Shown piece by piece: positions 26,200 through 50,081 of a stretch of 64,000 nt of DNA (positions are counted from its first letter, which is position 1; the number at the start of each line of letters is the position of its first letter). The notes under the pieces were generated by a model. That model was not told where the DNA came from and ran no database searches. It saw nothing but the letters and a program-made list of their open reading frames with translations. The stretch spans positions 23,169,322 through 23,233,321 of the forward strand of contig OX365955.1 of the NCBI GenBank assembly GCA_947247005.1. The letters are read 5' to 3'. Origin of the DNA: Spisula solida. Lineage: Eukaryota; Mollusca; Bivalvia; Venerida; Mactridae. Position numbers and translations under genes: made by a program.

Positions 26200-26535
26200 C
26201 CTTTAGGGACGCAACATTAATAAGGGAAGTAACTCTAACATACCTATCATATTAATAAAGGGAAGTAACACTAACATACCTATCACATAAATAAAGGGAA
26301 GTAACTCTAACATACTTATCACAATAATAAAGGGAAGTAACTCAATCAGGCTAATAAAATTGATAAAGGGAAGTAACTCTAACATACCTATCATATTAAT
26401 AAAGGGAAGTAACTCTAACATACTTATCACAATAATAAAGGGGAGTAACTCGATCAGGTTAATAAAAATGATAAAGGGAAGTAACTCTAACATACTTATC
26501 ACATTAATAAAGGGGAGTAACTCTCACAGTCTTGT
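26200..26535. repeat. Minisatellite (AGGGAAGTAACTCTAACATA) beside the SAM1 exon
   Basis: About nine copies of a 33-39 bp unit. On the gene strand each unit reads roughly TTACTTCCCTTTATTAATAT then GATAGGTATGTTAGAG, i.e. a pyrimidine-rich tract, AG, and GTATGT. Open frames on both strands (repeats of LELLPFI and of KGSNSN) are created by the repeat and are not genes. Confidence 0.92.
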
Positions 26536-27434: not shown

Positions 27435-27538
27435 CAAGAAATCAATGTTGTCGTAACCATTAGCAACGAAGGCATTCTCATACTGTGGAAAACAGACTGA
27501 CTCCAACCATTCACCAACACTTATCATCTGACCAGATC
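27435..27538 (-). CDS. ANKS1A: ANKS1-like SAM domain 1, first half
   Basis: The exon encodes 34 residues with the canonical ANKS1 SAM1 start: SVGEWLESVCFPQYENAF followed by ANGYDNIDFL. The vertebrate SAM1 has the same VGEWLES..L.QYE pattern. SAM domains are five-helix bundles used for homo- or hetero-oligomerisation; in ANKS1A SAM1 is reported to take part in receptor binding (family knowledge). It starts in phase 1 and ends in phase 0; the acceptor is TTTCAACTCTAG and the donor TTG|GTAAGT, a perfect U1 match. The domain is completed by the exon at 26066-26177. Confidence 0.95.
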
Positions 27539-29732: not shown

Positions 29733-29826
29733 CTGCTAGTAATTTTGTGAAGGCTGGTTGAAAATCACGAACAAATACACTTTCTCTCGCTATACCACCC
29801 CCAAATGACTCCATTATATCTTGTAT
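29733..29826 (-). CDS. ANKS1A: ANKS1-like alternative exon B (mutually exclusive with 31823-31955)
   Basis: This 94-nt exon encodes 31 residues beginning IQDIMESFGGGIARESVF and ending in a short hydrophobic helix (FTKLLAG). It starts in phase 0 and ends in phase 1, splicing in frame to SAM1 (LAG then SGQMISVGEW). Acceptor is TTTATTCTGTAG and donor GCAG|GTACTT. It is shorter than exon A but clearly derived from the same ancestral exon. The choice between A and B changes the segment just before SAM1, so it could alter partner binding or phosphorylation; that is inference. Upstream lie about six tandem copies of a 23-26 bp unit containing the exon's acceptor. Confidence 0.87.
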
Positions 29827-29972
29827 CTACAGAATAAAGTGTAAGAACCATTCTATATAAAAAGTGGATACCATTCTATAGATAAAGTGTGAAAACCAGA
29901 CTATATAAAGTGTGAAAACCAAACTATATGTTTGAACACCACAGTCTATATATAAGTGTGAAAACCAGTCCA
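29827..29972 (-). repeat. Tandem array of exon B acceptor copies
   Basis: About six 22-26 bp units. On the gene strand each reads like TGGTTTTCACACTTTATATAG; the unit next to the exon is TGGTTCTTACACTTTATTCT then GTAG, and its AG is the real acceptor of exon 29733-29826. Each upstream unit keeps a T/C-rich stretch and a terminal TAG, so each is a potential competing acceptor. Confidence 0.9.
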
Positions 29973-29975
29973 AGA

Positions 29976-30240
29976 TATAGTGCGGAGATTTTGACGTGAT
30001 ACTCGACCTTCTATTAGCATAATTTACCAGCTGATATCTTAGTCTATATTCAGAACCCTGGTTGTATGTTTTCGTAAGCGAGGAATATCATGAAGATGCT
30101 CTAGATGTGATTCAAACACAAATGTAAAGGACTGACATTTGAACAATTTGCTTGCAGACATTGGTATAATTTCAAACGCAAGAACCTCGTAATCTATTCA
30201 TGCATAAAGGTGAGGATCAAGTCAATATCTCCGTACTATA
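29976..30240. mobile_element. MITE family B copy 3 (inverted)
   Basis: Starts TATAGTGCGGAGATTTTGAC and ends CAATATCTCCGTACTATA, reversed relative to copies 1 and 2 (TTACCAGCTGATATC near its left end). It abuts the exon B acceptor array. Confidence 0.85.
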
Positions 30241-31204
30241 CATGGTAAGACATGGCAGGAGAAGTTGCTTATTAGCAGTTAAGATGCCAAGATGCTGCAG
30301 ATGGTCAAGATGCTGCAGACGCATGCAATGATGTCACAGGACTCATCAAGGTGTAGTAGGAGCTTGCTGGAAAAATACACGAAACAATCAACAGTTACTA
30401 TGAAATAATGAACACAGCTTTAGTGCGCCCACGATAATGAGAATGGCGGGAATATTTGGTATACTCCACAAACAAAGGTGGATTTAAATCAGTTATGCAC
30501 AATTTACAGGTGAGGTGTTTAGTACAAAACTGACCATATCTGTTTTACTTTAGTTATTTGTAAAACCAATTTTGCAACGATTGACCAAACAGATTCATGT
30601 TTATAAGCATTACATCATCCTGGGTGCACTATAACAAACACAATAGATGATGACCATACATATATTCCAGGGAACGTGAAATATGTACATACATACAGTC
30701 TACAAATATTTCTGAAATTCAGACTGGTCTGCTATATGTGTGCATTCATGCAGTTTACAAGTATCTGCTAAATCTGGTAAACATCACAGAACCAGTCAGG
30801 CTTGCACATAAATCTTCAGCATAGACATTACAGTCAGACTTTTAATTTAATTTGCAAGTGATTCATTTACAGAATAACTGAAGTGCCAAAATGGAGTGCA
30901 AAAATACCAACGCAGTCCATATATAGATTCTAGTTGATATAACACTTGGAGCAAAAACTCAAATAGAAATTCCAATTAACTGCAGATAATTAAGGTAATT
31001 GATATTAACAATTTGCCAGCAAAAATTACTATTAGAATAGTGAAAAGAGTAAAGAATTTAGAAACATTTAATTGAAGGCATACAAAGACATGAAAAATGT
31101 AGCAAGTGGTAAGGTAGACACGATATCATTAACTATAAAGAAGTTAAAGACTGTATGTAATATGGAATTTAAAATGACCAGCCCAATGGTGACCCCCTTG
31201 TCTA

Positions 31205-31618
31205 GTCCAGGGAGATATGAACCTGATCCTCTCAAACTCTATTAGCATAATTTTAACAGTTTAATTCTTGTCACTATATAGCTTCAGGAGTCTGTTGCCA
31301 AAGCATAGTGCTTCAGAGCGCCTAAAATTTATTCAGTTGCCTTCAGTTAAATAGAAGGCATGGATAACCTCCCTTGGAAAGCGCTATGTGGCGCTTACCC
31401 TTGTTAACAGTCTTCAGCTTTGTGTATATTTATTGAGCAGGAAAGTTACAAATATGCATAAGGTCCACTAAAACTAATATACAAGAGGTGCACTAACAAA
31501 GAATCGAAAGGACCAATAATGCATCATTAATATGAAAATCTATATATTTATAATGAACCTTGTGATATACTAAGACATGCATTCAATAAGGTCAGGATCA
31601 GGTTAATATCTCCAAGGA
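31205..31618. mobile_element. Diverged family B-like MITE with nested insertion
   Basis: Ends GGAGATATGAACCTGATCCT and AGGATCAGGTTAATATCTCC form an inverted pair related to family B. A family I element (31286-31420) lies inside it. Confidence 0.65.
31286..31420. mobile_element. MITE family I copy 2 (short)
   Basis: Begins AGGAGTCTGTTGCCAAAGCA and ends near CCTTGTTAACAGTC, with the family AAGCGCTATGTGGCGCTT palindrome inside. It is an internally deleted relative of 19512-19809. Confidence 0.6.
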
Positions 31619-31822
31619 CCTTCGACCAAGGTCATGGACAACCATGAAGTGATCACAGAATGTACAATGGACGATCAACACCTTTGGTTAAACACAGTAA
31701 AATACATTCTATAACCCTACATCCTGATTCATACAGGTTCACATGCACTTTATGCCAAGGTCACCATGCACAGATCTTGCATCGCATCAGCATCAAAGGT
31801 CAGAGGGCAAGGTCATTTATAC

Positions 31823-31955
31823 CTCTTTCCCGTTTGGACAGCAAATTGTCCATATAAGCTTCAAATGCATTATTAAATTCTTCCTCACTGGGCGAGTATG
31901 TCGGTGAAGTAAAGGTGGTCAAGTTTCCACCAAAACTTGACATAATATCTGCTAT
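31823..31955 (-). CDS. ANKS1A: ANKS1-like alternative exon A (mutually exclusive with 29733-29826)
   Basis: This 133-nt exon encodes 44 residues starting IADIMSSFGG, with a Ser/Thr/Pro-rich middle and an acidic amphipathic end (SEEEFNNAFEAYMDNLLS). It starts in phase 0 and ends in phase 1; the acceptor is GTGTTTTCAG and the donor GAG|GTATAA. The start resembles the IMSS segment before SAM1 in vertebrate ANKS1A. It is a paralog of exon B at 29733-29826: both share I-x-DIM-x-SFGG and a later F..AF...L..., and both have the same phases. Joining A to B would shift the frame and meet TGA inside B, so only one can be used per productive mRNA. The intron just upstream is a tandem array built from this exon's own acceptor region. 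Confidence 0.85.
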
Positions 31956-32410
31956 CTGAAAACACGGGTACAATTAACACAATGTATGACATATAGTAAA
32001 GGTCAAGGTAATATATGTATGACATAAAAATGTCAAGGTCACCTGAAACACGGGTACAATTAACACAATGTATGACATAAAGTAAAGGTCAAGGTCACCT
32101 GAAAACACAGGTACAATTAACACAATACAATGTATGACATATAATAAAGGTCATGGTCATATATTTATGACATAAAAATGTCAACGTCGTCTGAAAACAC
32201 GGGTACAATTAACACAATGTATGACATATAGTAAAGGTCAAGGTCATATATTTATGACATAAAATTTTCAAGGTCATGTATTTATGACATAAAACGGTCT
32301 AAGTCATATATTTATGACATGAAAGTGTCAAGGTCACCTGAAAACACGGGTACAATTAACACAATATATGACATAATAATATTATAGTAAAGGTCAAGGT
32401 CATATATTTA
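31956..32410 (-). repeat. Tandem array of exon A acceptor copies
   Basis: The segment adjoining exon A (plus strand CTGAAAACACGGGTACAATT and on to TATGACATA) recurs at about 32043, 32098, 32191 and 32338. On the gene strand every copy ends GTGTTTTCAG like the real acceptor. Between copies are tandem TTTATGACATAAAA and AAAGGTCAAGGTCA motifs. The array was evidently made by amplifying the exon's own upstream intron. Confidence 0.92.
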
Positions 32411-33670: not shown

Positions 33671-33906
33671 CTTAGCCCATTCTTCGGTGTCGTCGAAGTT
33701 GCCAGCATCGGAGGTGGAAGCCCGCTTCGCTACCTCGACATCGATCGACTTCATCACCTGATCTACATCTATATCCTCGTCTTTATCCATGTTTGGTTTT
33801 AGGGGCTTCGAGTCGGGGTTTCGGATACGGCTCTGACGTATAACATCATTGTAAAATTGTGACCGAACCTTCGGTGGTCCACCTATTGTTGATCCTCTTA
33901 ACAGAC
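33671..33906 (-). CDS. ANKS1A: ANKS1-like linker exon upstream of SAM1 (236 nt)
   Basis: The exon encodes about 78 residues of low-complexity linker: a basic, Gly/Pro-containing start, then an acidic middle (MDKDEDIDVDQVMKSIDVE) and a final EEWAK. The end aligns with the segment of vertebrate ANKS1A just before its SAM1 domain, where a similar EW-containing helix precedes an IMSS motif. Acceptor is CCTATATTTCAG and donor AAG|GTACCA. It starts in phase 1 and ends in phase 0. CpG and GC content are higher than in flanking intron, as expected of coding DNA. It feeds into either of the two alternative exons, both of which start in phase 0. It is intracellular and probably unstructured; no catalytic function is expected. 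Confidence 0.88.
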
Positions 33907-48548: not shown

Positions 48549-50081
48549 CAAGAGGGCCCAAAGGGCCATAGGTCGCTCACCTGTCCTAGTAGTTCATGCA
48601 CCCCTAATGGTAGCCTCTATTGCATGTACAAGGTTTTCATATTGTCTTATGCTTTATAGTTTACATCACATTTAGACCCAATGACATATTGAAGTGATTG
48701 GACCTTGTGACCTAGTTTTTGACCCCGGATGACCCAATATTGAACTTGACCTGGATTTTTTTGAGATGATCATTGTGACAAAGTTTCATAAAGATTAGAC
48801 AAAAATTGTGACCTCTAGTGACTACACAAGGTTTTTTATGATTTGACCTTGTGACCTAGTTTTTGACCCCGTTTGACCCAATATCGAACTTGACCTAGAT
48901 TTTGTTGAGATGATCATTGTGAACAAGTTTGATAAATATTCGGTCAAAATTGTGACCTCTAGTGACTACACAAGGTTTTTCTATGATTTGACCTTGTGAC
49001 CTAGTTTTTTACCCCGGATGACCCAATATAGAACTTGACCTAGATTTTGTTGCAATGATTATTGTGAGTAAGTTTCATAAAGTTTAGGCAAAAATAGTGA
49101 CCTCTAGTGACTACACAAGGTTTTTCTATTATTTGACCTTGTAACCTTGCTTTTGACCCCGGATGACCCAATATCAAACTTGACCTAGATTTTGTTAAGA
49201 TGATCATTGTGTACAAGTTTCATAAAGATTAGGTCAAAATTGTGACCTCTAGTGACTACACAAGGTTTTTCTATGATTTGACCTTGTGACCTAGTTTTTG
49301 ACCCCGGATGACCCAATATCGAACTTGACCTAGATTTTGTTGAGATGATCATTGTGATTAAGTTTCATAATGATTAGACCAAAATTGTGACCTCTAACGC
49401 CTACACAAGGTTTTTCTAATATTTGACCTTGTGACCTTGTTTTTGACCCTGGATGACCCGATATAGAACTTGACCTAGATTTTGTTAATATGATCATTGT
49501 GACCAAGTTTCATAAAGATTAAATTAAAATTGTGACCTCTAGTGACTACACAAGGTTTTTCTATCATTTGACCTTGTGACCTAGTTTTTGACCCTGGATG
49601 ACCCAATATCGAACTTGACCTAGATTTTGTTGAGATGATCATTGTGACCAAATTTCATAAAGATTAGACCAAAATTGTGACCTCTACTGACTACACAAGG
49701 TTTTTCTATGATTTGACCTTGTGACCTAGTTTTTGACCCCAGATGACCCAATATAAAACTTGACCTATATTTTGTTCAGATGATCATTTTGACCAAGTTT
49801 CATAAAGATTAAGACAAAATTGTGACCTCTAGTGTCTACATAAGGTTTTTCTATGATTTGACCTTGTGACCTAGTTTTTGACCCCGTATGACCCAATATC
49901 GAATTTGACCTAGATTTTGTTGAGATGATCATTGTGACCAAGTTTCATAATGATTAAGCTAAAACTGTGACCTCTAGTGTCTACACAAGTAATTGTGAAC
50001 GGACGACGGACGGACGACGGACGGACGACGGACGAAGAGTGATCACAAAAGCTCACTCTGTCACTGTGTGACAGGTGAGTT
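48549..50081. mobile_element. Pearl-like element with nine-fold tandem core
   Basis: Starts ACAAGAGGGCCCAAAGGGCC then ATAGGTCGCTCACCTGTC, and ends GTGTGACAGGTGAGTT. The core is about nine tandem units of roughly 145 bp, each with TGACCTTGTGACCTAG, TTTTTGACCCCGGATGACCC, TTGAGATGATCATTGTGA and GTGACCTCTAGTGACTACAC. It is followed by a GACGGACGACGG microsatellite. No coding. A short relative is at 62354-62886. Confidence 0.93.

What the first reader, a model, noticed from the sequence alone, without database searches (positions are those of the whole stretch)
29827..32410. Both alternative exons are preceded by tandem copies of their own 3' splice acceptor
Upstream of exon B, a 22-26 bp unit ending TATAG is repeated about six times, and the last one is the real acceptor. 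Upstream of exon A, a longer unit ending GTGTTTTCAG on the gene strand is repeated at about 32043, 32098, 32191 and 32338 besides the real one at 31956. The two arrays are unrelated in sequence, so acceptor amplification happened independently next to each member of the pair. This suggests decoy acceptors, spacing control or steric competition as a selection mechanism for mutually exclusive splicing. Chance minisatellite growth is the alternative.
Basis: partly seen in the sequence, partly recalled or inferred. Interest (0 to 1): 0.9.

Follow-up and report, generated by a model that had tools for sequence, protein, structure and literature searches.

The report
Splice acceptors copied in tandem trains
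In an ANKS1 gene of what is likely a clam, the splice signal that ends the intron is present in several tandem copies in front of each of two predicted alternative exons, and similar trains stand before other exons of the same genome, so they are likely a general kind of repeat growth rather than the switch that chooses between the two exons.

Summary
The arrays are real. On the minus strand exon A (31955-31823) follows four extra copies of its acceptor; copy 32191 equals the real one over 45 of 45 nt. Exon B (29826-29733) follows five 22-25 nt units ending TATAG. The gene is ANKS1; nearest named relative Mactra antiquata. A or B alone reads open, both or neither hits stops, and 9 of 9 extra acceptors give stops. 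The exon pair is old (both forms in bivalves and gastropods); array A looks young. Such arrays are not special to the pair: of 99 other acceptors sampled in this genome (ANKS1, myosins, kinesins), 7 have a tandem array ending within 25 nt, about 1.3 expected; donors 2 of 106. In 4 of the 7, by eye, the units carry the acceptor itself. Before a myosin P-loop exon, nine upstream copies match the real acceptor's last 15 intron and first 8 exon nt. I read the arrays as minisatellite growth that takes in 3' splice sites and is tolerated. A role in choosing A or B is unsupported, not excluded. The acceptor-over-donor bias is suggestive (Fisher P 0.09), not proven.

The parts
31956..32410 (-). array A: tandem copies of the 3' end of the intron before exon A; extra acceptors end at 32338, 32191, 32099 and 32043, the real one at 31956
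31823..31955 (-). exon A, 133 nt, phase 0 to 1, IADIMSSFGG...; one residue differs in Mactra antiquata P0177
29827..29968 (-). array B: 22-26 nt units; five end TATAG (29946, 29924, 29901, 29876, 29853), the sixth carries the real acceptor ...TTCTGTAG at 29827
29733..29826 (-). exon B, 94 nt, phase 0 to 1, IQDIMESFGGGIARESVF...; form shared with arthropods, a priapulid and echinoderms
33671..33906 (-). exon n1, common upstream exon, ends ...EEWAK
27435..27538 (-). exon S1a, common downstream exon, first half of SAM domain 1
26214..26528 (-). 36-bp array ending 37 nt before the acceptor of exon S1b (26177); some units hold acceptor-like TAG, none in register with the real acceptor

Best explanation
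Each array is a run of tandem copies of the intron's own 3' end (pyrimidine-rich stretch plus AG) standing directly before exon A or exon B of an ANKS1 gene, most likely grown by ordinary minisatellite slippage, and it is likely a burden the spliceosome tolerates rather than the device that makes the two predicted alternative exons exclusive. Shown: the copies; the shared 0-to-1 phase of A and B; stops when both or neither exon is included; stops after use of any of the nine extra acceptors; similar trains before other exons of this genome. Inferred: a segment spanning the acceptor is duplicated by slippage or unequal exchange, and selection keeps the copy next to the exon because only it gives an open frame. 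That copy is predicted to be favoured by exon definition and, at B, e436 and e813, mostly also by a better pyrimidine tract. Use of an upstream copy is predicted to end in nonsense-mediated decay. In array A, where the extra acceptors score as well as the real one, they would modestly lower exon A yield. Exclusivity itself is predicted to rest on the frame clash and decay.
For: Frame: A alone or B alone gives 469 or 456 open codons over the exons placed, A+B or neither gives stops, and 9 of 9 extra acceptors give stops. Age: A-type and B-type segments as isoforms of one gene in Saccostrea and Haliotis rubra and spread over other molluscs; array A copy 32191 identical to the real site over 45 nt. 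Recurrence: 4 of 22 acceptors of this gene have an array edge within 25 nt, 0.23 expected, P 0.0004, donors 0 of 22; myosin exons 4 of 44 acceptors, 0.60 expected, P 0.0045, donors 1 of 47. Origin from the acceptor: in a myosin P-loop exon nine upstream units repeat the acceptor plus the first 8 exon bases. Local: the A 23-mer has no exact match elsewhere in the genome.
Against: In the window alone arrays are not significantly near acceptors (3 of 12, P 0.11). A cruder count on 30 myosin exons showed no acceptor bias (2 upstream, 4 downstream within 60 nt). Kinesin exons gave 1 of 35 acceptors and 1 of 37 donors. Pooled acceptor against donor is only P 0.09. Three of the seven acceptor-side arrays outside the pair are not in register with the acceptor. 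Array edges in A and B fall within a few bases of the exon, which slippage alone does not predict. No RNA was seen, so tolerance and decay are untested.
Confidence: 0.72

Rival explanations
1. The arrays are working decoy acceptors: they hold U2AF or divert splicing into dead-end products, so each array sets how often its exon is used and so helps to choose between A and B.
For: Extra acceptors in array A score 2.97-4.62 against 2.97 for the real site; one of five in array B scores 6.66 against 6.38. All nine lead to stops. Minisatellites near alternative exons have been linked to splicing in C. elegans (PMC4039745, passages).
Against: Trains also precede other exons of the gene and a myosin P-loop exon; four of five B copies are weaker than the real site; the pair is much more widely shared than the near-identical A copies suggest for the array.
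Confidence: 0.15
2. The arrays carry ratchet points: AG followed at once by GT lets the long intron be removed in steps, so each extra acceptor is spliced away again.
For: Three of four extra A acceptors read CAG followed by GTGACC, which scores 3.12 as a donor against -0.56 for the donor of n1.
Against: They rank only 6, 11 and 13 of 248 AG-GT sites in the window; +5 is C; the fourth A copy and all five B copies lack GT after AG; the myosin and e813 units lack it too.
Confidence: 0.04
3. The choice of exon is set by competing RNA pairings between mobile-element ends in the A-B intron and the exon starts, and the arrays are loops of these structures.
For: 31205-31230 could pair with 31594-31619 (-40.3 kcal/mol) or with 30214-30232 (-34.0); the stretch before array B pairs with the start of exon B at -29.5, shuffles -15.3, and with the start of exon A at -27.9.
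Against: The elements belong to a dispersed MITE-like family with four more copies of 72-80% identity in the window; 26 of 7970 places scanned in the window pair as well in the same geometry; no conservation could be tested.
Confidence: 0.06
4. Plain coincidence: introns here are full of minisatellites (8% of the window, 11% of the gene region) and some end at exons on either side; nothing favours acceptors.
For: 3 of 12 in the window, P 0.11; one search showed 2 upstream and 4 downstream of 30; kinesins 1 and 1; pooled acceptor against donor P 0.09; density.
Against: Shift tests in two sets of genes, and units in register with the acceptor at 4 further exons, against no in-register donor array among 106 (by eye; Fisher P 0.053).
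Confidence: 0.3

Closest known systems
Tandem duplicated, mutually exclusive exons kept apart by reading frame (U2AF1 exons Ab and 3, PMC5224494; list of enforcing mechanisms in PMC7969005; passages read)
   Same: Duplicated exons; including both or neither gives stops
   Different: No RNA evidence here; a train of acceptors precedes each member
Intronic minisatellites or VNTRs tied to splicing (CeRep25B, PMC4039745, passages read; ABCA7 VNTR, PMC5954066, search listing)
   Same: Tandem arrays in introns beside exons
   Different: Here the repeated unit contains the acceptor itself
Intron gain by tandem genomic duplication (PMC4974935, PMC3443670; search listing)
   Same: Tandem duplication of a stretch that holds splice signals
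   Different: Here existing acceptors are multiplied inside an intron; no new intron is shown
AG exclusion zones and distant branch points (PMC1431707; search listing)
   Same: Concerns AGs between branch point and acceptor
   Different: These arrays put AGs every 22-147 nt upstream of the predicted acceptor

Membership tests
Mutually exclusive duplicated exon pair | adjacent exons with related sequence and the same phase | tested here: met
   IADIMSSFGG and IQDIMESFGG starts, both phase 0 to 1; no blastn match between A and B at DNA level at E 0.01
Mutually exclusive duplicated exon pair | both or neither breaks the frame | tested here: met
Mutually exclusive duplicated exon pair | either form occurs as an isoform of one gene | tested here: met
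Mutually exclusive duplicated exon pair | transcripts of this species carry one or the other | not testable with these tools
   no RNA reads
Minisatellite | head-to-tail copies of a unit of tens of bases | tested here: met
Decoy 3' splice sites | score like the real site | tested here: met
   array A 4 of 4; array B 1 of 5
Decoy 3' splice sites | compete with the real site in splicing | not testable with these tools
   needs RNA or minigenes
Recursive splice sites | acceptor followed at once by a good donor | tested here: inconclusive
   3 of 4 A copies have GTGACC; ranks 6, 11, 13 of 248
Mobile introner or transposon | copies dispersed in the genome | tested here: inconclusive
   exact 23-mer of array A only in this array; the similarity search with a whole unit did not complete
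Docking/selector RNA structures | pairings conserved across species | not testable with these tools
   no related genomic DNA was available

The most novel reading that the evidence does not exclude
In this genome the 3' splice site itself is a unit of minisatellite growth: a few per cent of exons (4 of 99 sampled outside the given pair) stand behind trains of up to nine intact, near-identical acceptors, and the spliceosome reliably takes the last one. Acceptor choice there cannot be decided by the local branch-point, pyrimidine-tract and AG sequence and must be set from the exon side.
Probability: 0.4. Interest if true: 0.8.

Novelty: new variant of a known kind. Interest (0 to 1): 0.55.

Why it matters
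How one AG is picked when several equal ones are offered is an old question, usually studied with engineered introns. These trains are natural experiments: near-identical acceptors in series, only the last of which gives an open frame. If RNA shows that the last copy is used, exon-side definition must override first-AG scanning; if not, the arrays are a measurable load on expression that varies with copy number. The widely shared A/B exon pair beside SAM domain 1 of mollusc ANKS1 also deserves a look for its protein function.

Tried and rejected
Acceptor matrices from 10 acceptors of this gene were noisy; I leaned on a generic frequency table recalled from memory. Local RNA accessibility did not separate real from extra acceptors. 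Arrays A and B fold better than shuffles (z -2.66 and -1.9); not pursued. Whether the start of exon A itself resembles the array A unit: not convincing (local P 0.046, anchored P 0.12-1.0). Exon-start pairing and competing mobile-element ends: set aside as probable chance or element effects. Recursive splicing: weak. One search misjudged the strand of seven myosin loci; redone. One search returned no BLAST rows (settings); redone. Paper searches (one search listed nothing) listed no report of tandem acceptor trains that I recognised from titles and abstract starts; the library lacks most subscription papers. Searches failed on a search term.

Full report
What is there. The window lies at C13:23169322-23233321 of a 932 Mb, 36-contig genome. 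A minus-strand gene of the ANKS1 family crosses it: two SAM domains and a PTB domain, 12 exons placed in the window, and further matches to a relative's protein from C13:23147782 to 23272400. The nearest named protein is from Mactra antiquata (P0177; 81% identity over the searched region), so the source is likely a related clam.

The exon pair. Exon A (133 nt) and exon B (94 nt) both start in phase 0 and end in phase 1 and begin with related peptides. A alone and B alone read open through the later exons placed; A plus B, or neither, runs into stops. Sorting relatives by eye from the printed sequences: A-type segments in Mactra, Saccostrea X3, Haliotis rubra X4, Mytilus coruscus and galloprovincialis, Mizuhopecten, Pecten X2, Sinanodonta, Patella X2, Pomacea X2, Babylonia X2, Plakobranchus and Candidula; B-type in Saccostrea X1, Haliotis rubra X2, Mytilus trossulus, Argopecten X3, Potamilus, Gigantopelta, Biomphalaria X11, Lymnaea, Elysia, Batillaria, Octopus sinensis, Priapulus, arthropods and echinoderms. 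Both forms from one species were seen in two (Saccostrea, Haliotis rubra). B looks ancestral and the pair older than the bivalve-gastropod split (inference). These are mostly database predictions, from lists capped at the best hits. P0177 carries exon A with one changed residue.

The arrays. Array A has four extra acceptors scoring 2.97-4.62, against 2.97 for the real site; array B has five, four below the real 6.38 and one at 6.66 (recalled frequency table). Copy 32191 equals the real A site over 45 of 45 nt; ungapped alignment of copies with indels gives larger distances (mean 0.16; B units 0.27). All nine extra acceptors lead to early stops. Neither array resembles the other, and the A 23-mer has no exact match elsewhere in the genome.

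The wider pattern. DNA of the gene above the window showed two more arrays that end at acceptors: e813, 25-nt units most of which end in TAG in register with the real TTTTAG, and e436, 39-nt units carrying TATATTTTAG. Over 22 exons, 4 acceptors have an array edge within 25 nt against 0.23 in circular shifts (P 0.0004), donors 0 of 22. A and B prompted the test; without them it is 2 of 20. Four acceptors and one donor had an array within 25 nt (expected 0.60 and 0.67; P 0.0045 and 0.49); within 100 nt the excess is not significant (4 against 1.9, P 0.13). Of 130 kinesin matches I fetched 40, taken from the first 42 and leaving out two with many stops: 1 of 35 acceptors, 1 of 37 donors. Pooled without A and B: 7 of 99 acceptors against about 1.3 expected (the kinesin share of that figure is my estimate), donors 2 of 106. 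Poisson P for acceptors is 0.0004, but acceptors against donors gives only Fisher P 0.09. By eye 4 of the 7 are in register (e436, e813, the myosin P-loop exon, kinesin L062) and three are not. An earlier cruder count on 30 of the myosin exons, from hit edges, showed no acceptor bias: 2 upstream and 4 downstream within 60 nt. In the window alone the association is not significant (3 of 12, P 0.11).

The clearest case. Before a myosin exon that begins SGESGSGKTEATK, nine upstream copies match the real acceptor in the last 15 intron nt and the first 8 exon nt, with at most two mismatches over 24 intron nt and one copy identical; a tenth unit has lost its AG. Entry at any unit gives a stop within 23 codons. 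These copies include exon bases, so the duplicated segment spanned the splice site: there the acceptor seeded the array, not the reverse.

How I read it. Slippage or unequal exchange likely duplicates a stretch around the acceptor, and such arrays persist because the copy next to the exon still works. At e436 and e813 the real copy has the best score, and at B all but one; in array A and the myosin exon it does not stand out, so exon definition is the likely arbiter. Exclusivity of A and B needs no array: the frame clash suffices, as described for U2AF1 (PMC5224494, passages) and listed among enforcing mechanisms in PMC7969005 (passages). The n1-A, A-B and B-S1a introns are 1.7-2.2 kb (coordinates), so a clash between 5' site and branch point is not expected. 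A decoy effect that tunes exon A remains possible.

Limits. No RNA, no relatives' introns and no gene annotation were available. Acceptors outside ANKS1 were taken as the best-scoring AG near a domain match. In-register calls were made by eye after seeing the arrays. Whether the myosin and kinesin exons are constitutive was not tested. The distance rules differ slightly (96 also allows arrays that run up to 12 nt into the exon).

Noticed in passing
L019 (C1:56025817-56026044, minus): Myosin P-loop exon behind eleven 29-nt units that each hold the acceptor plus the first 8 exon bases; nine upstream AGs are intact.
   Followed up: partly
L010 5605-5950 and 7898-7983 (C13:23258926-23259271 and 23261219-23261304): Two more acceptor-ending arrays in the same ANKS1 gene, 25-nt and 39-nt units, before exons e813 and e436.
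   Followed up: yes
L062 (C19:24227850-24228668): Kinesin exon behind a 34-nt array of about three copies; two upstream TTTATTGSCAG copies in register with the real TTTATTTGCAG.
   Followed up: partly
window 29976-30241: MITE-like element next to array B with four more copies in the window (72-80% identity); its end could pair with the start of exon B.
   Followed up: partly
window 31205-31619: Second, related inverted-repeat element in the A-B intron; its arms could also pair with the element at 29976-30241.
   Followed up: partly
window donors at 33671, 31823, 29733: Donors of n1, A and B all lack G at +5; n1 and A are the two weakest of the 12 donors scored.
   Followed up: no
window between 19944 and 2824: P0177 has eight residues (HRFLRQLQ) between the residues of exons p2 and p3 that my model lacks, so a microexon probably lies in this intron.
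   Followed up: no
window 48695-49989: 145-bp satellite of about nine copies; L048 holds a 145-bp array that looks like the same sequence on the other strand.
   Followed up: no
L036 (C9:32467960, donor side): 66-nt array starting 7 nt after a myosin donor: arrays can abut donors too, but this unit does not carry the donor.
   Followed up: no
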